48,792 bases of DNA from Ruminococcus sp. (GTDB taxonomy: Bacteria; Bacillota; Clostridia; Oscillospirales; Ruminococcaceae), in assembly GCA_014799805.1 (NCBI GenBank), contig JAAVHJ010000022.1, positions 1-48,792 on the forward strand. The letters are read 5' to 3'. Each line of letters starts with the position of its first letter. Position 1 is the stretch's first letter. The position numbers were made by a program, and so were the translations under genes. A model generated the notes under the pieces. The model saw only the letters and a program-made list of their open reading frames with translations. It was not told the origin of the DNA and ran no database searches. Below are positions 3,447 through 31,152 of this stretch, piece by piece.

Positions 3447-4277
3447 ATGAAAGATGTAATGATTTTAACAGGTACAGGGCAAATTGGAATGGCAATTGCA
3501 AGAAGAATGGGTCATGGAATGAAGATTGTCATTGGTGACAGGAAGTCTGAAAATGCAAATGCTATCGCTAACATCATGAATCAGGCTGGTTTTGACTGTG
3601 AAGCTATGGAAATGGACTTGTCCTCACGTGATTCAATAAAATCAATCATTGCTGAAGCTCAGAAGTACGGCGAAATTAAAATGCTTGTAAATGCTGCAGG
3701 CGTTTCACCATCACAAGCACCTATTGAAGCAATTTTAAAAGTTGACCTTTATGGTACAGCAGTACTTCTTGAGGAAGCTGGCAAGGTAATTGCAAATGGC
3801 GGTGTTGGTGTGACAATTTCAAGTCAGTCTGGTTGGAGAATGCCACAGCTTACCGCAGAAGAAGATGCTTTACTTGCTACAACTCCTACTGAAGAATTAC
3901 TTAATCTTGAAATTCTCAAACCTGAAAATATTAAGGATACGCTTCATGCTTACCAGATAGCGAAACGCTGTAATGAAAAGCGTGTCATGGCTGAGTCTGT
4001 GAAATGGGGCGAACGTGGTGCAAGAATCAATGCTATTGCACCAGGAATTATTGTAACACCGCTTGCACTTGACGAATTCAACGGGTCCCGTGGTGATTTT
4101 TATAAAAATATGTTTGCAAAGTGTCCAGCAGGCAGACCTGGCACTGCCGATGAGGTTGCAAATGTTGCAGAGTTACTCATGTCCAACAAAGGAGCATTTA
4201 TTACAGGCTCAACATTCCTTATTGATGGTGGTGCAACATCTTCATATTTCTATGGAGCACTTAAACCAGAAAAATAA
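3447..4277 (+). CDS. Short-chain dehydrogenase/reductase
   Basis: A 276-residue SDR-family oxidoreductase. The cofactor loop reads TGTGQIG (residues 8-14), a variant of the usual TGxxxGIG. NAAG is at residues 82-85, serines stand near 125-128, and the active-site YxxxK is Tyr169-Lys173. The C-terminal AIAPGIIVTP and the final GSTFLIDGG match the family. AAAGGAG precedes the ATG. It is the last gene of the redox cluster and is followed by a terminator at 4283. The substrate is unknown; a xenobiotic or secondary alcohol is possible. Confidence 0.9.
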   Translation: MKDVMILTGTGQIGMAIARRMGHGMKIVIGDRKSENANAIANIMNQAGFDCEAMEMDLSSRDSIKSIIAEAQKYGEIKMLVNAAGVSPSQAPIEAILKVDLYGTAVLLEEAGKVIANGGVGVTISSQSGWRMPQLTAEEDALLATTPTEELLNLEILKPENIKDTLHAYQIAKRCNEKRVMAESVKWGERGARINAIAPGIIVTPLALDEFNGSRGDFYKNMFAKCPAGRPGTADEVANVAELLMSNKGAFITGSTFLIDGGATSSYFYGALKPEK

Positions 4278-4282
4278 AAAGT

Positions 4283-4319
4283 CTCAATTCTGAAATATAC
4301 ATTTAGATTTGAGTTTTTT
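4283..4319 (+). terminator. Intrinsic terminator of redox cluster
   Basis: CTCAA at 4283-4287 pairs with TTGAG at 4309-4313, and the stem continues inward with several A-T pairs and a few mismatches. A T6 tract at 4314-4319 follows. It lies just after the dehydrogenase stop codon. Confidence 0.6.
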
Positions 4320-4463
4320 CTAAGTTTGTTAATTAAATGGATTATGTTATCCCAAGATTTACCAAAAAATTATGAAATCTGTACTGTTTATGTCGAAGCT
4401 ATACTTGTTATTTTTTATCTGCATACTCCGAATACTTCACATATTTCTTTTATTGTATGTTTT

Positions 4464-4491
4464 GAGGGCAAGTGTTTTACAACTTGCTCTC
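4464..4491 (+). other. Stem-loop in the intergenic stretch
   Basis: GAGGGCAAGT (4464-4473) pairs with ACTTGCTCTC (4482-4491), ten pairs with one G-U, around an 8-base loop. The following TTAAATTTTTATT is moderately T-rich, so this may be a second terminator. I see no gene between 4278 and 4809: the open frame at 4326-4541 lacks a ribosome binding site and has no protein-like composition. Confidence 0.5.
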
Positions 4492-4590
4492 TTAAATTTT
4501 TATTGTCAATGATATTTCTATTTTATCATATTTCCAATTAAAGCTATTTATTTAATATCAGTATCTAAATAAACTGTTTTTCTTCTGTTT

Positions 4591-4749
4591 TGTTGCATAA
4601 TTCATTAAAATGTTGCGTAAATACATGCTATTGAATATAATGTTGCATGTTATGTTACAGCATTGCGTAAACAAAAAAATAATTAGGCTGTGTTGCAATT
4701 ATTTAGAGTTTGTTGCAATTCTGCAAAAGATATTGATTTTTACGCAACG
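4591..4749 (+). repeat. Helically phased TGTTGC box array (putative operators)
   Basis: Six direct copies of a box like TGTTGCRTAA begin at 4591, 4611, 4641, 4661 (CATTGCGTAA), 4691 and 4711. The spacing alternates exactly 20, 30, 20, 30, 20 bases. A seventh, inverted copy (TTACGCAACG) occupies 4740-4749, between the promoter boxes of the next gene. Steps of two and three helical turns place every box on the same DNA face, as expected for cooperative binding. The downstream gene starts with an HTH domain, so autoregulation is the simplest inference. Replication-type iterons are an alternative, but no replication gene is present. Confidence 0.7.
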
Positions 4750-4766
4750 ATATGGTAAGATATAAT
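4733..4766 (+). promoter_or_regulatory. Promoter of HTH-PIN-ankyrin locus
   Basis: TTGATT at 4733-4738 and TAAGAT at 4756-4761 are 17 bp apart, and TATAAT follows at 4761-4766. The inverted TTACGCAACG box lies in the spacer, so a protein bound there should block RNA polymerase. Confidence 0.6.
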
Positions 4767-4809
4767 CACGAAAGATAATCCTGTGAACACAGTCAAGGAG
4801 GAATTAGCG

Positions 4810-6132
4810 ATGACTAAAAGAGAAATGGAATTTTTGGGAGGGCGAATGACCCAACTTCGTGAAAAAAATGGAGTAAAAAGCCTCCAAGCTATGATGAAAC
4901 AGCTACAATCCAGTGATAAAGAAGAATATCAAGTCTATAATAAATCAACACTCTCAAGAGCCGAAAACGGTTCTGCTGGGGAAAAGACTATTGTTAAATG
5001 GGCAAAAGCCTATTGTTATGTATTCAACTATTCTGAAAAACAAACTGAACAATTCCTAAGAGGTGACAAAATCGCTGTTCCAGATACATCAGCACTTTTG
5101 AAAAACCCTCAGTTGGTGGATGAACTTGGTGAGGAATATAATATTGTTGTTATTCCCGACATTGTTATTCGAGAACTTGACAGCATTAAAAATTCAAATA
5201 CAGGTACTCTGGGTAAGCGAGCATGGGAGATTATTAAAGGAATTGGTTATGGTGAGCGAATTGTCAAGATGAAATACAGTGGCGATAAATCTATTAAAAA
5301 AGATGAACAGATTATTGCAGTAGCCAAAGATGCCGCTGAAAAATATGGCTGCGAAGTACAAATTATTACAGATGATGCTGACTACTCAGCATTTTTGAAG
5401 GGTGATGATACAGTAACTGCGTTACATTTAAGAGAGTATATGATAACAAAGCAAAAACTTATCAACATGAACGGGCTTGTAGAGCTTGATAAATACTATG
5501 CTGATGATTACTCCGACATTATTCCTCCTAATGAAGATGAGATCAATGCTTTTCTGCCTGATGGAAACACCCTGATAATATCAACAGTAAGAAATCGTAA
5601 ATACAGTTTTGAGCAAAGGAAGGCTAAAATACAATGGCTTATTGCCCATAGTGCTGATATTGACAAGAGAGATTGCAAACATAGATACTTTCCTCCTCTT
5701 ACTCACGCAATCCAGATGACTGACTATAATATGTTTATTTTCCTTCTGAATGAATGCCATGCTAATCCGAATGTAGGCAGTCGTAATCCCCATGATGCAG
5801 GAAAACTCAGACAGAAAGACATAAAACGTGAAAAGAATGAAGGTAATATGCCATTAATGGTTGCAGCTTGGGACGGAAAAGTAGAATTTGTGAAAGCTCT
5901 CTGTGCAGATGAAGGAACAAGTATAAATCAACAAGATGCTAATGGTTTCACTGCTTTGATAAAGGCTTGTTATTGGGGTTTCTTAAAATGTAGAGATATA
6001 CTGTTAGAAACAGGAGCAGATATAAAAATTGTAGATATAGATGGTTTAACTGCTGAGGATCATTATAATGGGTATCTTGAAACAGGAAGAAAAAAATCAA
6101 ATAAGCAGAACAAGAAAGGAAGGCGTTTCTGA
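4810..6132 (+). CDS. HTH-PIN-ankyrin fusion protein
   Basis: A 440-residue protein with three parts. Residues 8-60 resemble an XRE-type helix-turn-helix (MTQLREKNGVKSLQAM, then STLSRAENG). Residues 88-212 resemble a PIN nuclease domain (VPDTSALL, PDIVIRELDSI, IITDDADYSAFL). Its acidic residues Asp92, Glu122, Asp165 and Asp188-191 are in the expected order, so metal-dependent RNA cleavage is plausible. Residues 295-420 contain ankyrin-like repeats (MPLMVAAWDGKVEFVKAL, FTALIKACYWGFLKCRDILLETGAD). A GTG start at 4783 is possible, but AAGGAGG at 4795-4801 fits the ATG at 4810. Its stop overlaps the next start as TGATG. The function is unknown to me; it could act as self-regulated toxin-like nuclease and sensor. 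Confidence 0.75.
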   Translation: MTKREMEFLGGRMTQLREKNGVKSLQAMMKQLQSSDKEEYQVYNKSTLSRAENGSAGEKTIVKWAKAYCYVFNYSEKQTEQFLRGDKIAVPDTSALLKNPQLVDELGEEYNIVVIPDIVIRELDSIKNSNTGTLGKRAWEIIKGIGYGERIVKMKYSGDKSIKKDEQIIAVAKDAAEKYGCEVQIITDDADYSAFLKGDDTVTALHLREYMITKQKLINMNGLVELDKYYADDYSDIIPPNEDEINAFLPDGNTLIISTVRNRKYSFEQRKAKIQWLIAHSADIDKRDCKHRYFPPLTHAIQMTDYNMFIFLLNECHANPNVGSRNPHDAGKLRQKDIKREKNEGNMPLMVAAWDGKVEFVKALCADEGTSINQQDANGFTALIKACYWGFLKCRDILLETGADIKIVDIDGLTAEDHYNGYLETGRKKSNKQNKKGRRF

Positions 6133-6962
6133 TGATTGACTGTGCTTGCATAAGTATAAACAATCATTGTAACTTAAATTGCACCCATACTCCTGAAAAG
6201 ACTGAATATCTCACAGAAAACAATATGAATGTGTATAAGATACTTAATAATATTAAAAATCATATTGACAAGTATAATATATCAGGATTCAAACTTGGCT
6301 GTGTTGGTAATGGAGAACCACTTCTCGATTATGATTCTTTGCGTGCATATATAAATTATATCAGTGACTATCTTGCTGATGGCAGGATAGCTGCTTACAC
6401 CATAACAAACGGAACACTGGTAACAGAGGAAATTCTCTACTTTTTTAAGACTTACAAAGTCAATATAGGATTCTCGATAGATGGTATATCACAAATACAT
6501 AACAAATACAGGTGCAATACTCATATTGCAGTTTTAGATGCAATAGAAATGTTCCGTATGGTAAACGGTCACTATCCTTCAATGAACTGTACAGTAAGCA
6601 GAGATGTACTTGACAGAACTGAGGAAACAATCGCTTTCTTTGAACCGTTCGGCAACAAGATTACTTTCTCTCGAATGATAGGAAAGAATGGCATCACGCT
6701 ATATGAATTCCAAAACTTTCTTGATAAGGCAAAAGTAAAGTTAAATATCCGTACAGGAGGTTATGACTGCACAATGTATGGTGGTATGTGTGGGGCAGGT
6801 ATAAATAATATCTTCTACGCTAATGGTAAGATATATATCTGTGGAAACTGTGTTGATTTGCCCGCAATAGCAGATGCTGATACTCCGCTTGATATGATAA
6901 AGCCTGATATTCCTGAATTTAATCGGAATACTTGTTTTAGAGAAATACTGAAAAAATCATAA
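6132..6962 (+). CDS. Radical SAM-like protein lacking the third cluster cysteine
   Basis: A 276-residue protein with radical SAM layout: CNLNC at residues 13-17, the SAM-contacting GNGEP motif near residues 59-63, ITNGTL, and FSIDG. The usual CxxxCxxC would place a third cysteine at residue 20, but the sequence reads CNLNCTHT with threonine there. The C-terminal part keeps several cysteines (GGYDC, GGMCGAG, YICGNC, NTC), which resemble a shortened SPASM/Twitch region binding an extra iron-sulfur cluster. Translation is coupled to the PIN protein by a one-base overlap. The enzyme may be degenerate, or another residue may complete the cluster. The substrate is unknown. Confidence 0.7.
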   Translation: MIDCACISINNHCNLNCTHTPEKTEYLTENNMNVYKILNNIKNHIDKYNISGFKLGCVGNGEPLLDYDSLRAYINYISDYLADGRIAAYTITNGTLVTEEILYFFKTYKVNIGFSIDGISQIHNKYRCNTHIAVLDAIEMFRMVNGHYPSMNCTVSRDVLDRTEETIAFFEPFGNKITFSRMIGKNGITLYEFQNFLDKAKVKLNIRTGGYDCTMYGGMCGAGINNIFYANGKIYICGNCVDLPAIADADTPLDMIKPDIPEFNRNTCFREILKKS

Positions 6963-6981
6963 GCAGAATGGATTTTAATAT

Positions 6982-7131
6982 ATGATTGCCACTATTAATA
7001 GAATATCAATAAATATGAGCGAATGCAAAGCTGACTTTGCTAATTTTATGATAACTTTGAAAATTGCTGAAGAAGTGAAGCATGTGCATGGGATCATAAA
7101 TAAAGTTCCAAAGACAGCTTTTAACAGCTAA
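6982..7131 (+). CDS. Possible small protein (49 aa)
   Basis: An open frame between the radical SAM gene and the kinase fusion, starting MIATINRISINMSECK and ending KTAFNS. Its composition looks protein-like and it fills most of the 202-base gap. No clear ribosome binding site precedes it, and a second ATG lies at 7015. It could be a small component of the locus, a coupled leader, or chance. I recognise no family. Confidence 0.35.
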   Translation: MIATINRISINMSECKADFANFMITLKIAEEVKHVHGIINKVPKTAFNS

Positions 7132-7164
7132 AAAAATAGAAATAAGAAAATGAGGTAATGTCTA

Positions 7165-8763
7165 TTGAAATATGTACTTTACGGACTGCCCTGTGCAGGA
7201 AAGACCACACTGCTCAGTGAGCTATCTATTCCTGTTATTCATGGCAGTATGGAACTAAACAAGATGGCATCGGGAAGATTTTTGGAGCTTTCTAATGCTG
7301 AAAGGAACGAACTGCGTGTAAGGTACGCAAAGAACCTTTGGGGAAGAAATGACAAATTCATCTCTGATGGTCACTATTCATTCCTTGATGATGTTGTCTT
7401 TACTGAAGCCGATGGTAAGTTATATGATGTTTTTCTATATTTGTACTGCGAGCCGGAGATAATAAGTAAACGGTTCAAACTTTCGTGCAAGAACAGTCAA
7501 TTTGCAAATCTGTCCACTAAACATATACACAAGTGGCAAACCTTTGAGATAGAAAGCTTACGTGCCGAGTGTCATAAGAGATGTAAGGATTTCTATGTAA
7601 TAAGTGATATATCTTCTATAGAATTACAGGTACTTATTGACAGAATCGAGAATGGTTTCGGTTCTTATAGACTTGCAAAAAACATAACGGAGAAGATACA
7701 ACAAATTTATCCTATGCCTTGTGAACTACATATCTGTGATGGTGATAAGACCATCATAGAACAAGATTCTTTCAGTGTATGTACAGACGACTATGTCACG
7801 CACATTTTCGATGGCAATTTCTATACGGACTATCAATCATTGCAGTTCAGTAGAGAAGTATATGCACTGGACTATAATACTGATAAACTCAGTACAATAC
7901 AGCTCAATGACATGATTTACAGCAGGATAGCCCATAAAAATTATTTCGTGCTGTCATCAGGAATAGATCATCTTTGGAAAATGCTTGCTGAACAATTTGA
8001 ATTAAAAAATGTTATTGCAGATACACTAATCTCTGCCGATACAAAGTATTTTGTGGTCAAGCTGCTGCAGGAAAAAGGCTACACAGTAACAGCTTATGGC
8101 GACAGCAAGAACGATTTTTACATGTTGAAACATGCTGATACTGGATATCTGTACATAGGTGCATATCTTAGCCGTTCGCTGAGAGATACAGACACTTCAG
8201 GTATCAAACTGCTTTATGATAAATCGCCATATATATTGGCTGACGTGGATGAAAATACCGCTGATGATATTTCAATATGCAAATCAGATTCAGGTATCAA
8301 TGGTTCAAGGCTTGCAGATACGCACATACGACTTGGCAGAATGCTTGGCGAAACTATTCACAGGTTCGTACCTAATACAGATACCGCAGTTATCGTTCTT
8401 GATAGAGGTGGTAGGTTCTTTGGTGACGGGTTATATACAAGTTTTGGAGGTATATTCTACAGTTATGATTCCAAAAGGGACAAGCTACCCAAGATTCACC
8501 ACAACATAGCGGTTATTGTTGACAGTGTTATCAATACTGGCAAATCTATTCTAAATATGATAGACAAGCTGAAACAATTTGCACCCGAAATAGAGATATT
8601 TATTGCCACCAATGTCATTCAAGAGAAAGCTCTAGATCATTTGAAAGAGTATAAGATTTTTGCAGTGAGAACTTCTGCTAACTCTTTTGTCGGCAGTAGG
8701 CAGGCTAAACAGAACGGAAAGGGTCCAGATACGGCGGATAGATTGTTTAATTATATTGAATGA
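7165..8763 (+). CDS. P-loop kinase - HAD phosphatase - uracil phosphoribosyltransferase-like fusion
   Basis: A 532-residue cytoplasmic protein with three enzyme-like domains. Residues 1-165 form a P-loop kinase of the nucleotide-kinase type (Walker A GLPCAGKTT at 7-15). Residues 186-335 form a HAD phosphatase (DGDKT at 192-196, SSG at 264-266, GDSKND at 312-317). Residues 340-532 resemble uracil phosphoribosyltransferase: LDRGGRFFGDGL, PRPP loop VDSVINTGKS at 452-461, and a base-binding C-terminus GPDTADRLF. The start is TTG, supported by GAGGT at 7152-7156; no better ATG is in frame. Such a set could attach ribose-phosphate to a base-like compound, then trim or phosphorylate it. That is inference from domains alone. 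Confidence 0.8.
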   Translation: MKYVLYGLPCAGKTTLLSELSIPVIHGSMELNKMASGRFLELSNAERNELRVRYAKNLWGRNDKFISDGHYSFLDDVVFTEADGKLYDVFLYLYCEPEIISKRFKLSCKNSQFANLSTKHIHKWQTFEIESLRAECHKRCKDFYVISDISSIELQVLIDRIENGFGSYRLAKNITEKIQQIYPMPCELHICDGDKTIIEQDSFSVCTDDYVTHIFDGNFYTDYQSLQFSREVYALDYNTDKLSTIQLNDMIYSRIAHKNYFVLSSGIDHLWKMLAEQFELKNVIADTLISADTKYFVVKLLQEKGYTVTAYGDSKNDFYMLKHADTGYLYIGAYLSRSLRDTDTSGIKLLYDKSPYILADVDENTADDISICKSDSGINGSRLADTHIRLGRMLGETIHRFVPNTDTAVIVLDRGGRFFGDGLYTSFGGIFYSYDSKRDKLPKIHHNIAVIVDSVINTGKSILNMIDKLKQFAPEIEIFIATNVIQEKALDHLKEYKIFAVRTSANSFVGSRQAKQNGKGPDTADRLFNYIE

Positions 8764-8778
8764 AAGCAAAAATGTATT

Positions 8779-8937
8779 ATGGCTTGGGAGTCAAATGAAA
8801 AAGGTAATCCTGCTTGGTTAACTAATTGGATAAATAAACACAATGACATTAATAATTTAATTAATGATATTTATAATAGCATAAAGCAAATAAAAAAGCA
8901 ATTCAGAAACAATCTAAATCAGATAAAACAGCATTGA
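8779..8937 (+). CDS. Possible small protein (52 aa), perhaps frameshifted
   Basis: An open frame starting MAWESNEKGNPAWLTNWINK, 15 bases after the kinase fusion and rich in Asn, Ile and Lys. No good ribosome binding site is visible. The A6 run at 8892-8897 may hide a frameshift, because another frame continues from there with KAIQKQSKSDKTALMQQTKK to a stop near 8976. It may be a remnant or a real small gene; I recognise no family. Confidence 0.3.
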   Translation: MAWESNEKGNPAWLTNWINKHNDINNLINDIYNSIKQIKKQFRNNLNQIKQH

Positions 8938-9022
8938 TGCAACAGACTAAAAAATCAGAATTGCATTTTTTCTGAAAATATGCTATGATAATAATTAAAA
9001 TACTAATATGAGGTGAATTTTT

Positions 9023-9193
9023 ATGAACGAATGTGAAACATGTGCTTACTATAGCTATGATGAAGAATGTGAATGTTATGTCTGTGAAGTAAACATGGAT
9101 GAAGACGAATATGCAAAGTTATTGCAAGGACATTACAAACGCTGTCCATATTACTATGAGGGCGATGAATATAAAATCGCAAAAAAACAGTAA
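9023..9193 (+). CDS. DUF6472-like small cysteine-rich protein
   Basis: A 56-residue acidic protein starting MNECETCAYYSYDEECECYVC, with a later RCPYYYEGDEYKIAKKQ. The C-x2-C near the N-terminus, the acidic DEDEYAKLL middle and the CPYY-DEYKI ending match the family I know as DUF6472, common in Clostridia. The cysteines probably bind zinc or iron. GAGGTG at 9010-9015 is well placed before the ATG. Its function is unknown in the family. It stands alone between the accessory locus and the terminator at 9385. The 190 bases after it hold no gene I can support. Confidence 0.75.
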   Translation: MNECETCAYYSYDEECECYVCEVNMDEDEYAKLLQGHYKRCPYYYEGDEYKIAKKQ

Positions 9194-9384
9194 GCACTAT
9201 CTGCTGATTTCAGAATTTTTATATATTTTTGCAGTCGGGATATCCTGTATATCACCAGAAACTTCCATTTTTTTATTTTCTTATTTTCATGGGCTTTCCA
9301 CATATTGCATAAAAAATTTGCTTTATTTCAGTTTTTTTATAATCTATCAGAATTATAACTACTTTTTTGAATTCAAAAAGCCAC

Positions 9385-9418
9385 AAAAAATCCAGATTTC
9401 TTAAAATCTGGATTTTTT
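9385..9418. terminator. Bidirectional intrinsic terminator
   Basis: TCCAGATTT (9391-9399) pairs perfectly with AAATCTGGA (9404-9412) around a 4-base loop. A6 flanks one side and T6 the other, so it works in both directions. It serves the converging DUF6472 and ferredoxin-thioredoxin reductase genes. Confidence 0.9.
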
Positions 9419-9420
9419 GT

Positions 9421-9618
9421 TTAATTTTTATCTTTATAATATAACAAACAATGACAATATCCTTCAAAATCAGGATCTGCAATTTGGTCCCGAAACTCTT
9501 TACACATACATTTATTTTCAGGAATCCGTTCTAAACGGCATGGACAATAACCGCCTGTTTGTTTCAAACCTTCACGAATTTGATTTACAATTTCCTTATC
9601 TTGATTCAATCTAACCAT
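9421..9618 (-). CDS. Ferredoxin-thioredoxin reductase catalytic subunit-like
   Basis: A 65-residue protein with the three CxC pairs of the catalytic (beta) chain: CPC at 25-27, CMC at 37-39 and CHC at 55-57. These bind a [4Fe-4S] cluster and carry the redox-active disulfide. The spacing (9 and 15 residues) differs from the plant and cyanobacterial form, as often seen in anaerobes. An in-frame TTG at 9627 overlaps the upstream stop; the ATG at 9618 is the more ordinary start. It directly follows a thioredoxin gene, so it most likely reduces that thioredoxin with ferredoxin electrons. No variable subunit is nearby, as is usual outside phototrophs. Confidence 0.8.
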   Translation of the reverse strand: MVRLNQDKEIVNQIREGLKQTGGYCPCRLERIPENKCMCKEFRDQIADPDFEGYCHCLLYYKDKN

Positions 9619-9623
9619 AATAT

Positions 9624-9941
9624 TCAAGAAACCCCATGTTTTTTAAATAATTCTAATATTTGAGAAGCGTTTCGTAAACCGACAACTGTTTCTAAAATTT
9701 CGCCGTTCTGGAATAATAGCATAGTTGGAATATTCGCAATTCCAAATTTCATAGCTAAATCACGGCAATCATCTACATTGACTTTGCCAATCTGAAGTGA
9801 TGCATTTTCTTCATCTAATGCATGGAGAATTTCACCTTGTTTCATACAAGGTGGACACCATGTTGCCCAAAAATCTACCAATACAGGTGTATGATTTTTA
9901 ATAAATTCTTGAAAATTATCCTGATTCAAATTAATTATCAC
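9624..9941 (-). CDS. trxA: Thioredoxin with CPPC active site
   Basis: A 105-residue thioredoxin. The active site is WCPPC (Cys29 and Cys32) rather than the standard WCGPC. The cis-proline is in NIPTML, and VDFWATW matches the conserved first strand. The changed dipeptide between the cysteines would alter redox potential and partner choice. It lies immediately upstream of the ferredoxin-thioredoxin reductase gene and overlaps its possible TTG start, so the pair forms a self-contained ferredoxin-driven disulfide reduction system (inference). AGAGGGAT precedes the ATG. Confidence 0.9.
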   Translation of the reverse strand: MIINLNQDNFQEFIKNHTPVLVDFWATWCPPCMKQGEILHALDEENASLQIGKVNVDDCRDLAMKFGIANIPTMLLFQNGEILETVVGLRNASQILELFKKHGVS

Positions 9942-29965: not shown

Positions 29966-30066
29966 TATGATACTCTTATTATAACATAATATTTCGACAA
30001 AATCAAGCCCTAATTAAGATATTTTTGGGAAAAATAATTGAAAATAAAAAAATAGGAGGATTTATA

Positions 30067-31152
30067 ATGAATCGCAGTATTTATCTTCGCAAAGATGGTC
30101 GTTGGGAAGCACGTATTTTTTTTGGAACAGATGAAAACGGGAAACGAAAGTCACGTTCGTTCTATGGAAAAACCCGTGAAGAAGCAGAACATAAATTATT
30201 AATGTTACAACAAAATTTTTCTAATGCATATGTAATAACGGAAATGACGGTAAAAGAATTAGCCGTTGAATTTTTAAATACACTTTCTATTAGATTAAAA
30301 GAATCTACAGTTGCAAATTATCGTATGAAAATTGAAAAGCATATTATTCCAGCGTTTGGTGAAATACAATGCTGTTTATTAAATAATAAAATTATTTATC
30401 AATTTATTGAGCAAAAATTAAAATCAAAACTTTCTGTCAGATATGTTACAGATATTCTTGTGCTTATGAAATCTATGTTCCGCTATGCAAGCCGTGAATA
30501 TCATATGAAAAATATGCTGGAAGATATCACTATGCCAAAATGCCAGAAACCTGAAATTAAAATACTCTCTGAGAAACAACAGGAAATTTTAAAGCAATAT
30601 ATCATGAAGCATCAAAATGTTACAACATTGGGAATCGCTTTATCACTTTATACGGGTATTAGAATTGGGGAATTATGTGCTTTGCAATGGTCAGACGTTG
30701 ATTTAAAAAAACGAATTCTGACCGTCAGAAAAACAATACAACGCATTCAAAGCCCAAATAAAACCCAACGTACCAGATTAGTGATTACTGCACCAAAAAG
30801 TCATAGTTCCTGTCGGGAAATCCCTATTCCTGATTGTCTTTATGAAATGCTTTTAAAATTTAAATCTAATCAAAATATTTATATCTTGTCCAGAAAAACT
30901 AAACCTATTGAACCCAGAACAATGCAATATCGATTTGCAAAAATTTTAAAAAACGCAAATTTACCGTCAGTGCATTATCACACATTACGGCACGCCTTTG
31001 CAACAAACTGTGTTGCATTGGGCTTTGATATAAAAATATTATCTGAAATTCTTGGACATAGTTCTGTAGAATTAACGCTGAATCGCTATGTACATTCCTC
31101 TATGAAACGCAAACAATATTGTATGAATTTACTGTCATGGTCGGTTTTATAA
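30067..31152 (+). CDS. Tyrosine recombinase / site-specific integrase
   Basis: A 361-residue integrase of the Tn916/phage type. Residues 1-50 form an arm-binding domain (MNRSIYLRKDGRWEARIFFGTDENGKRKSRSFYGKT), followed by a core-binding domain at about 55-160. The catalytic domain has Arg in TGIRIGELCALQW, HTLRH, LGHSS and the nucleophile Tyr in LNRYVH, all intact. AGGAGG precedes the ATG; an upstream in-frame start lacks a site. No other phage, plasmid or ICE genes surround it, and no excisionase is visible. The gene lies between perfect inverted repeats, downstream of a tRNA array. Confidence 0.93.
   Translation: MNRSIYLRKDGRWEARIFFGTDENGKRKSRSFYGKTREEAEHKLLMLQQNFSNAYVITEMTVKELAVEFLNTLSIRLKESTVANYRMKIEKHIIPAFGEIQCCLLNNKIIYQFIEQKLKSKLSVRYVTDILVLMKSMFRYASREYHMKNMLEDITMPKCQKPEIKILSEKQQEILKQYIMKHQNVTTLGIALSLYTGIRIGELCALQWSDVDLKKRILTVRKTIQRIQSPNKTQRTRLVITAPKSHSSCREIPIPDCLYEMLLKFKSNQNIYILSRKTKPIEPRTMQYRFAKILKNANLPSVHYHTLRHAFATNCVALGFDIKILSEILGHSSVELTLNRYVHSSMKRKQYCMNLLSWSVL

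What the first reader, a model, noticed from the sequence alone, without database searches (positions are those of the whole stretch)
4591..8763. Unrecognised three-gene locus: HTH-PIN-ankyrin, radical SAM-like, kinase-HAD-phosphoribosyltransferase
Seen: a self-contained block with a phased operator array, a promoter, an HTH-PIN-ankyrin fusion coupled by TGATG to a radical SAM-like gene, and a three-domain nucleotide-type enzyme (P-loop kinase, HAD with DGDKT, UPRTase-like with PRPP loop and GPDTADRLF ending). Known: PIN domains cut RNA; HAD, phosphoribosyltransferase and kinase domains co-occur in predicted nucleoside-like metabolite pathways such as those near Ter stress systems. Inference: the locus may make a modified nucleotide that controls or is sensed by a PIN nuclease, as a stress, toxin-antitoxin-like or defence system. 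I cannot name a described system with this set.
Basis: partly seen in the sequence, partly recalled or inferred. Interest (0 to 1): 0.8.

Follow-up and report, generated by a model that had tools for sequence, protein, structure and literature searches.

The report
Mobile PIN-nuclease and nucleotide-enzyme operon
A patchily distributed gene set in gut Clostridia and some phages, with relatives in archaea, couples a DNA-binding protein with an RNA-cutting domain, which probably represses its own promoter, to a set of nucleotide-type enzymes; I found no description of it in print, and it may be a new kind of phage-defence or competition system.

Summary
Window 4591-8763 holds a phased operator array, a promoter, an HTH-PIN-ankyrin gene overlapping a radical SAM (rSAM) gene by TGATG, and a kinase-HAD-phosphoribosyltransferase gene. 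They form a real unit: of 25 loci on distinct contigs, 19 (Clostridia and viral contigs) carry PIN-Ank, rSAM, kinase-HAD and PRTase in one cluster, 3 are cut by contig ends and 3 are partial. Domain calls hold by profile and by an AlphaFold model. The array is the strongest new finding: its word follows the HTH class (GTTGCR in 9 of 9 class-I loci), and an inverted copy lies in the best promoter in 16 of 20 loci, 1.1 expected. HTH-PIN-Ank and operator change together between similar enzyme backbones. Two copies sit between phage lysin and integrase genes; one abuts Druantia. Most likely it is a mobile conflict or defence module: an autorepressed RNase set by a nucleotide that the enzymes make. 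Function is inferred, not shown. The window copy looks damaged: its rSAM lacks the third cluster cysteine and its NERD gene is a remnant.

The parts
4592..4748 (+). Operator array: GTTGCR sites at 4592, 4612, 4642, (4662 imperfect), 4692, 4712 and an inverted site 4743-4748
   Evidence: 2 of the 3 genome-wide GTTGCR-N14-GTTGCR pairs lie here
4733..4766 (+). Promoter: TTTACG-16-TATAAT (4739-4766) or, matching relatives, TTGATT-17-TAAGAT (4733-4761, by eye); the inverted operator lies inside or overlaps the end of the -35
4783..6132 (+). HTH-PIN-ankyrin protein (HTH about residues 18-93, PIN 99-200, ankyrins about 303-430); likely start ATG 4810
   Evidence: the PIN acidic residues D101, E131, D174, D198 are invariant in 16 of 16 aligned members
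6132..6962 (+). Radical SAM protein with C-terminal auxiliary cysteines; this copy lacks the third Cys of CxxxCxxC
7000..7155 (+). Remnant of a NERD nuclease gene that lies at this place in some relatives
   Evidence: best E 2.6e-5 to the NERD C-terminal part (blastp without composition correction, against a database of only the operon's accessory proteins); Pfam NERD in L026 and L036
7165..8763 (+). Kinase-HAD-phosphoribosyltransferase: adenylate-kinase fold 1-165, SerB-like HAD 183-352, uracil-PRTase fold 353-532
8779..8937 (+). Truncated copy of a small gene (start MAW, one membrane segment by eye in relatives) that follows the kinase gene in several relatives
   Evidence: the first 33 residues match (best E 1.9e-13, same small database), then divergence

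Best explanation
A mobile conflict (most likely anti-phage or superinfection) operon. HTH-PIN-Ank is both autorepressor and effector. It binds a phased array of direct-repeat operators, with an inverted site between -35 and -10, and keeps the operon low. The rSAM enzyme and the kinase-HAD-UPRTase make, phosphorylate and dephosphorylate a uracil-like (modified) nucleotide that reports cell state or infection and sets whether PIN-Ank stays on DNA or is free to cut RNA. NERD and small proteins are accessories. Shown: gene linkage, conserved PIN residues, operator/HTH co-variation, operator at the promoter, exchange of HTH-PIN-Ank types, some mobile and phage settings. Inferred: binding and repression, RNA cutting, the nucleotide and its role, and the anti-phage purpose.
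For: 19 of 25 loci carry the whole set. L054 was found through PIN-Ank alone and still has rSAM, kinase-HAD and PRTase adjacent. The operator word follows the HTH class: GTTGCR 4 or more in 9 of 9 class-I loci and 2 or fewer in 10 others; TGTGCA 4 or more in 7 of the 8 class-II loci; of three loci found after the words were set, L038 and L040 fit and L039 has no array. On the enzyme tree class I changes at least 3 times on starred branches, and the operator goes with it in 3 of 3 independent pairs. The inverted word lies in the best promoter in 16 of 20 loci, 1.1 expected. In L039 the HTH-bearing PIN has lost its first catalytic Asp and a second, HTH-less PIN-Ank keeps the motif, as if regulator and nuclease had been split. 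Settings: L036 and L039 lie between a lysin (Pfam) and serine recombinases (by eye); L054 lies between portal-like and terminase-like genes (by eye). L018 abuts Druantia DruE1 (1766.8 bits). All three enzyme domains have clear fold matches.
Against: No function was measured. Defence neighbours were tested only for L018 (2 proteins) and L026 (1 protein, generic helicase similarity, best 2e-14 to DrmD), with no background rate. Of the PADLOC models only PDC-M72A and an ankyrin model match PIN-Ank well, both over ankyrins alone. The window copy has lost the third rSAM cysteine while PIN-Ank stays intact, so rSAM product is not an absolute requirement for tolerating PIN-Ank (or the loss is an assembly error). 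HTH classes were named by eye with the arrays in view for the first 16 loci; the independent-pair test is small (3 pairs, p 0.25). No array was found in L039 or L054. No nucleotide-sensing domain was identified in PIN-Ank.
Confidence: 0.42

Rival explanations
1. Toxin-antitoxin-like addiction module: PIN-Ank is a toxin, autorepressed by its own HTH, and the enzymes supply an antidote metabolite or modify its RNA target. It persists because loss kills the cell, not because it stops phages.
For: Operator array at the promoter; mobile settings; patchiness: 3 of 38 genus genomes, 1 of 295 order genomes by rSAM profile, our own.
Against: The window keeps intact PIN-Ank beside an rSAM lacking a cluster Cys. 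No separate antitoxin gene was seen. Damaged loci exist (L019, L029).
Confidence: 0.2
2. Antiviral-nucleotide maker that works like viperin: the rSAM product, processed by kinase-HAD-PRTase, poisons phage polymerases, and HTH-PIN-Ank is mainly the regulator.
For: Weak rSAM similarity to pVip profiles (7e-10; 6.5e-12 for L040); adenylate-kinase fold in the same operon.
Against: The NCBIfam viperin model scores 37.3 bits against a cut-off of 180 and several peptide- and sulfatase-maturase models score higher, though also below their cut-offs; the best-scoring solved structures are anaerobic sulfatase-maturating enzymes (3e-17). The PIN acids are invariant in 16 of 16, which a mere regulator would not need.
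Confidence: 0.15
3. RNA damage and repair or RNA-modification cycle: PIN (and NERD) cut nucleic acid and the kinase-HAD pair heals ends in the manner of polynucleotide kinase-phosphatase.
For: Kinase-HAD order as in T4 Pnkp (recalled); nuclease-type genes in the operon.
Against: The HAD aligns best with SerB-type small-molecule phosphatases and the kinase with adenylate kinases; I noticed no ligase among the listed ORFs, by eye; the UPRTase domain does not fit end healing.
Confidence: 0.1
4. Prophage or lysogeny regulator with metabolic cargo: a CI-like repressor module, PIN irrelevant to defence.
For: Repressor-like HTH and operator array exchanged together, like phage immunity regions.
Against: I noticed no phage structural genes by eye in the 11 genome-contig loci listed; PIN acids are conserved.
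Confidence: 0.1

Closest known systems
PIN-domain anti-phage systems DS-3 and DS-5 (DefensePredictor, PMC13092281; passages read)
   Same: A PIN ribonuclease is essential for defence, without a classical antitoxin
   Different: The passages describe no ankyrins, rSAM, kinase-HAD-PRTase or operator array for these systems
Prokaryotic viperins (pVip; PADLOC PDLC02903, NCBIfam NF038283)
   Same: A radical SAM enzyme, some next to a nucleotide-type kinase; weak profile similarity
   Different: Far below the viperin cut-off (37.3 of 180 bits); partners here are a HAD, a UPRTase and PIN-Ank
VapBC-type PIN toxin-antitoxin systems (recalled)
   Same: PIN nuclease with an autoregulatory DNA-binding domain
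   Different: HTH is fused to the nuclease; ankyrins and nucleotide-type enzymes are added; direct-repeat array of about six sites
Ter-associated nucleoside-like metabolite pathway (recalled; only the phrase was seen in the listing)
   Same: HAD and PRTase enzymes thought to make a nucleoside-like molecule
   Different: The PRTase is UPRTase-like, not PRTase_2; I noticed no Ter gene among the listed ORFs but did not search for one
PADLOC candidate PDC-M72A
   Same: Ankyrin half of PIN-Ank matches (1.5e-22 for L039's second PIN-Ank; 3.5e-11 for the window)
   Different: The matched stretch does not cover PIN; no paper in the library holds the name

Membership tests
PIN domain nuclease (PF13638) | Profile above cut-off and four acidic active-site residues | tested here: met
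   51.3 bits against 21.9; 16 of 16 members match at E 0.01; acids invariant in 16 of 16 (which residues are catalytic is recalled). L039's HTH-bearing copy, not in that alignment, is an exception
Radical SAM superfamily (PF04055) | Profile above cut-off | tested here: met
   38 bits against 29.5
Radical SAM superfamily (PF04055) | CxxxCxxC cluster motif in the window copy | tested here: not met
   Third Cys absent in the window; present in 18 of 18 aligned relatives and in L054
Uracil phosphoribosyltransferase-like (PF14681) | Profile, PRPP loop and fold | tested here: met
HAD phosphatase | DxDxT motif and fold | tested here: met
Adenylate-kinase-like P-loop kinase | P-loop and fold | tested here: met
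Prokaryotic viperin | Curated viperin model cut-off | tested here: not met
   37.3 bits against 180
Ter-associated PRTase_2 (PF15609) | Profile cut-off | tested here: not met
   12.9 bits against 28.8
Type II toxin-antitoxin (VapBC) | Separate small antitoxin gene beside the PIN gene | tested here: inconclusive
   HTH is fused to PIN and I saw no separate antitoxin beside it in the window's ORFs; L020, L023 and L026 have an unexamined short ORF upstream
Type III-A retron PRTase | Reverse transcriptase and retron RNA beside the PRTase | tested here: inconclusive
   PRTase_III-A 16.7 bits over 49 residues; no Rfam match at gathering score in window 4200-9650; RT not searched for
Polynucleotide kinase-phosphatase (T4 Pnkp) | Pnkp-type kinase and HAD folds | tested here: inconclusive
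   cannot exclude it
Anti-phage defence system | Measured protection from phage | not testable with these tools
   Needs an experiment

The most novel reading that the evidence does not exclude
A new class of mobile immune or conflict system. A ribonuclease that is its own DNA-bound repressor is held on a phased operator array and released by a nucleotide messenger made by a dedicated rSAM, kinase, phosphatase and phosphoribosyltransferase pathway. Its repressor-nuclease-plus-operator alleles are swapped like phage immunity types, so that co-resident elements do not silence each other.
Probability: 0.3. Interest if true: 0.92.

Novelty: categorically new. Interest (0 to 1): 0.76.

Why it matters
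If true, it adds a nucleotide-controlled RNase system whose chemistry (rSAM plus uracil-type PRTase) differs from the messengers of CBASS or type III CRISPR, and a regulatory design in which the effector itself is held on DNA. The exchange of repressor-nuclease types with matching operators makes incompatibility or immunity typing directly testable in gut Clostridia and their phages.

Tried and rejected
Single-protein searches found nothing in plasmids or phages for P0003 and for the HTH-PIN part, nothing in viral contigs for P0003 and P0002, and nothing for P0003 by peptide pattern in genome contigs. The order search with P0003 gave 5 of 295 genomes besides our own at E 3.6e-5 to 9.8e-4, all short matches within the HAD part. 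Plasmid rSAM hits (65 records) looked generic: the four regions that I read lacked the partners. The two plasmid matches to a phage kinase-HAD covered the HAD part only, and phages gave none for a phage-contig rSAM. A1 found no relative in viral contigs. Rfam: no match.

Relaxed constraint on the window rSAM was tested and not seen: pN/pS 0.16 and 0.22 in two window pairs, 0.14 and 0.20 in two intact pairs; its departure rate from otherwise invariant columns, 0.090 with the gap counted, is among the three highest of ten but equals L030's and is below L025's. So the missing Cys is recent or an assembly error. One search used a wrong word for class I (9 of 20); one search is the corrected count. 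In some loci the annotated start lies at or upstream of the promoter, so extend the region by 70 bases, without that, found the inverted word in the top-ranked pair in 13 of 18 loci. The shuffle test was not striking for every locus: 161 of 200 shuffles reached the top count for L022, 121 for L036, 41 for L024, 32 for L033, 31 for L031, 19 for L025; those arrays rest on the shared word and spacing. On the enzyme tree the class labels are no more clustered than shuffled ones (106 of 500 shuffles as low for class I), as expected if they are exchanged, but most of its inner branches are unstarred.

The window's SDR gene upstream has long matches in four other genus genomes; beyond it, the fetched DNA of three of them did not align with the system. 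That is no clean empty site and I draw nothing from it. No model of the rSAM or PIN-Ank could be made.
Full report

Distribution. In the window's genus 3 of 38 genomes, our own included, carry the kinase-HAD-PRTase. In samples of the order (295 genomes; rSAM profile, E 1e-40) and the phylum (398 genomes; P0003, E 1e-6) only our own does. An alignment-based pattern scan of genome contigs gave 18 loci (it needs exact peptide matches, so this is a lower bound), and viral contigs gave more. Removing repeats (L016 and L017 are L030 and L023; L037 and L052 are L036; L055 is L040; L056 is L039), there are 25 loci with the window; L053 is a separate contig but its PIN-Ank is identical to L036's over 385 residues. 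Nineteen have PIN-Ank, rSAM, kinase-HAD and PRTase in one cluster: window, L018, L020, L022-L028, L030-L033, L036, L038, L039, L040, L054. L021, L035 and L053 are cut by contig ends. L019 (C-terminal rSAM remnant, no PIN-Ank match), L029 (fragments) and L034 (kinase-HAD only) are partial. The two archaeal loci, L034 and L035, are thus not complete sets. In L031, L033, L036, L038, L039, L040 and L054 the PRTase is a separate gene directly after kinase-HAD. L018 has another gene order (NERD, kinase-HAD-PRTase, PIN-Ank, rSAM). Most loci were found through the enzyme genes, so enzyme linkage is partly by selection; PIN-Ank linkage is not, and L054 was found through PIN-Ank alone. NERD-type genes match in L018, L020, L021 (starts at the contig end), L023, L026, L032, L036, L038, L039 and L040, and a fragment at the contig end of L028; in 9 aligned NERD proteins D132, E145 and K147 are invariant.

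Operators. Upstream of the operon, class-I loci (window-type HTH) carry GTTGCR words at alternating steps of about 20 and 30 bp; class-II loci carry TGTGCA at steps of 20 and 13 bp (33 where one is missing); L024 has TGCCA and L035 TTGTAA words. I named the classes by eye with both HTH and array in view for the first 16 loci; the PIN-Ank tree, built without the HTH columns, gives class II as one side of a 100/100 branch. In one search, GTTGCR counts are 4-9 in 9 of 9 class-I loci and 0-2 in 10 others; TGTGCA counts are 4-7 in L018, L020, L023, L026, L031, L033 and L040, 0-1 in class I and 0 in L024, L035 and L039. L038, L039 and L040 were found after the words were set: two fit, L039 has no array; L054 shows none of the tested words as an array either. 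The best -35/-10 pair of the region holds the inverted word in its spacer or at the end of its -35 in 16 of 20 loci against 1.1 expected; the misses are L030 (one base off by eye), L035, L039 and L054. This is the layout of a repressor that blocks RNA polymerase. That the HTH-PIN-Ank protein is the binder is inferred from the co-variation.

Exchange. L032 and L026 share 85% of rSAM and 67% of kinase-HAD residues but 34% of PIN-Ank and 10% of the HTH part; L032 and L025 share 68%, 59%, 86% and 73%. On the rSAM plus kinase-HAD tree (18 loci; L035 and L054 not included) class I needs 5 changes, at least 3 forced by starred branches (5 of 15 inner branches are starred). On the PIN-Ank tree (19 loci) class I needs 2 and class II 1. 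Operator follows class in 3 of 3 starred independent pairs (sign test p 0.25; too few for significance). In L039 the HTH-bearing PIN has His in place of the first catalytic Asp and is followed by a second PIN-Ank without HTH that keeps the motif. L039 also lacks the array.

Setting. L036 and L039 lie between a phage lysin (Pfam) and serine recombinases (by eye). L038 and L040 have serine-recombinase-like genes nearby (by eye). L054 lies between portal-like and terminase-like genes (by eye). Seven neighbour proteins from L017, L018, L022, L026 and L032 given to Pfam are recombinases, an integrase, a relaxase or a transposase; I chose them because they looked mobile, so this is not a rate. L018 abuts DruE1 (1766.8 bits) and a DruD-like gene (6.5e-9); one L026 neighbour has generic helicase matches. 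I did not count defence neighbours against a background.

The window copy. Its rSAM lacks four residues, including the third cluster Cys, that the 18 aligned relatives have; intact copies exist. The NERD gene is reduced to a remnant and the following small gene is truncated (E-values from a very small database). Selection on the rSAM gene still looks purifying. So the window is probably a recently damaged copy, or the assembly is wrong there.

Mechanism. I put most weight on a conflict module in which the autorepressed RNase is set by a nucleotide made by the enzymes (0.42). The UPRTase domain keeps the PRPP-loop Asp and a GPDT-RLFN ending in 12 of 12 rows (L023, not among them, differs at the first residue of the ending). 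The ending resembles the uracil-binding ending of UPRTases (recalled), which argues for a uracil-like base. Everything about the molecule, the RNA target and phage protection is inference.

Known work. Ten full-text searches listed no paper that looked like this gene set; I saw listings only, except passages of two papers. In DefensePredictor (PMC13092281) PIN nucleases DS-3 and DS-5 and a HAD-containing system are described in phage defence; the HEPN survey (PMC3710099) does not describe this set in the passages shown. PHROGs matches of the L036 proteins are generic (PhoH-like over the PIN part, repressors, radical SAM) and absent for kinase-HAD, PRTase and NERD.

Noticed in passing
L039:7480-9983: Two PIN-Ank genes in one phage-contig operon: one with HTH and a lost first catalytic Asp, one without HTH and with the motif intact.
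   Followed up: partly
L018:138-6405: Druantia DruD-like and DruE1 genes directly upstream of a copy of the system.
   Followed up: yes
L037:13693-13905; L039:13809-14054; L040:14173-14385: A conserved roughly 70-80-residue protein follows the NERD gene in phage versions; no PHROGs match for the L037 copy, no Pfam match for the L039 copy.
   Followed up: partly
L018:11982-12227; L021:3006-3242; L026:9960-10196; L040:14869-15087: A highly conserved roughly 72-residue protein (ending DWLHQYL) travels with the system; no Pfam match (L026 copy) or PHROGs match (L040 copy).
   Followed up: partly
L020, L023, L026, upstream of HTH-PIN-Ank: A short ORF starting MNDVMKGML lies between the operator array and the HTH-PIN-Ank gene.
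   Followed up: no
L034:7962-9194: An archaeal (Methanomethylophilaceae) kinase-HAD relative at 28% identity without a PIN-Ank or rSAM match in the fetched stretch.
   Followed up: partly
window 9383-9420: A 17-pair inverted repeat scored as terminator-like on both strands, between the locus and the next operon.
   Followed up: no
window 30025-31152: A tyrosine-recombinase-like integrase gene (by eye) elsewhere in the window.
   Followed up: no
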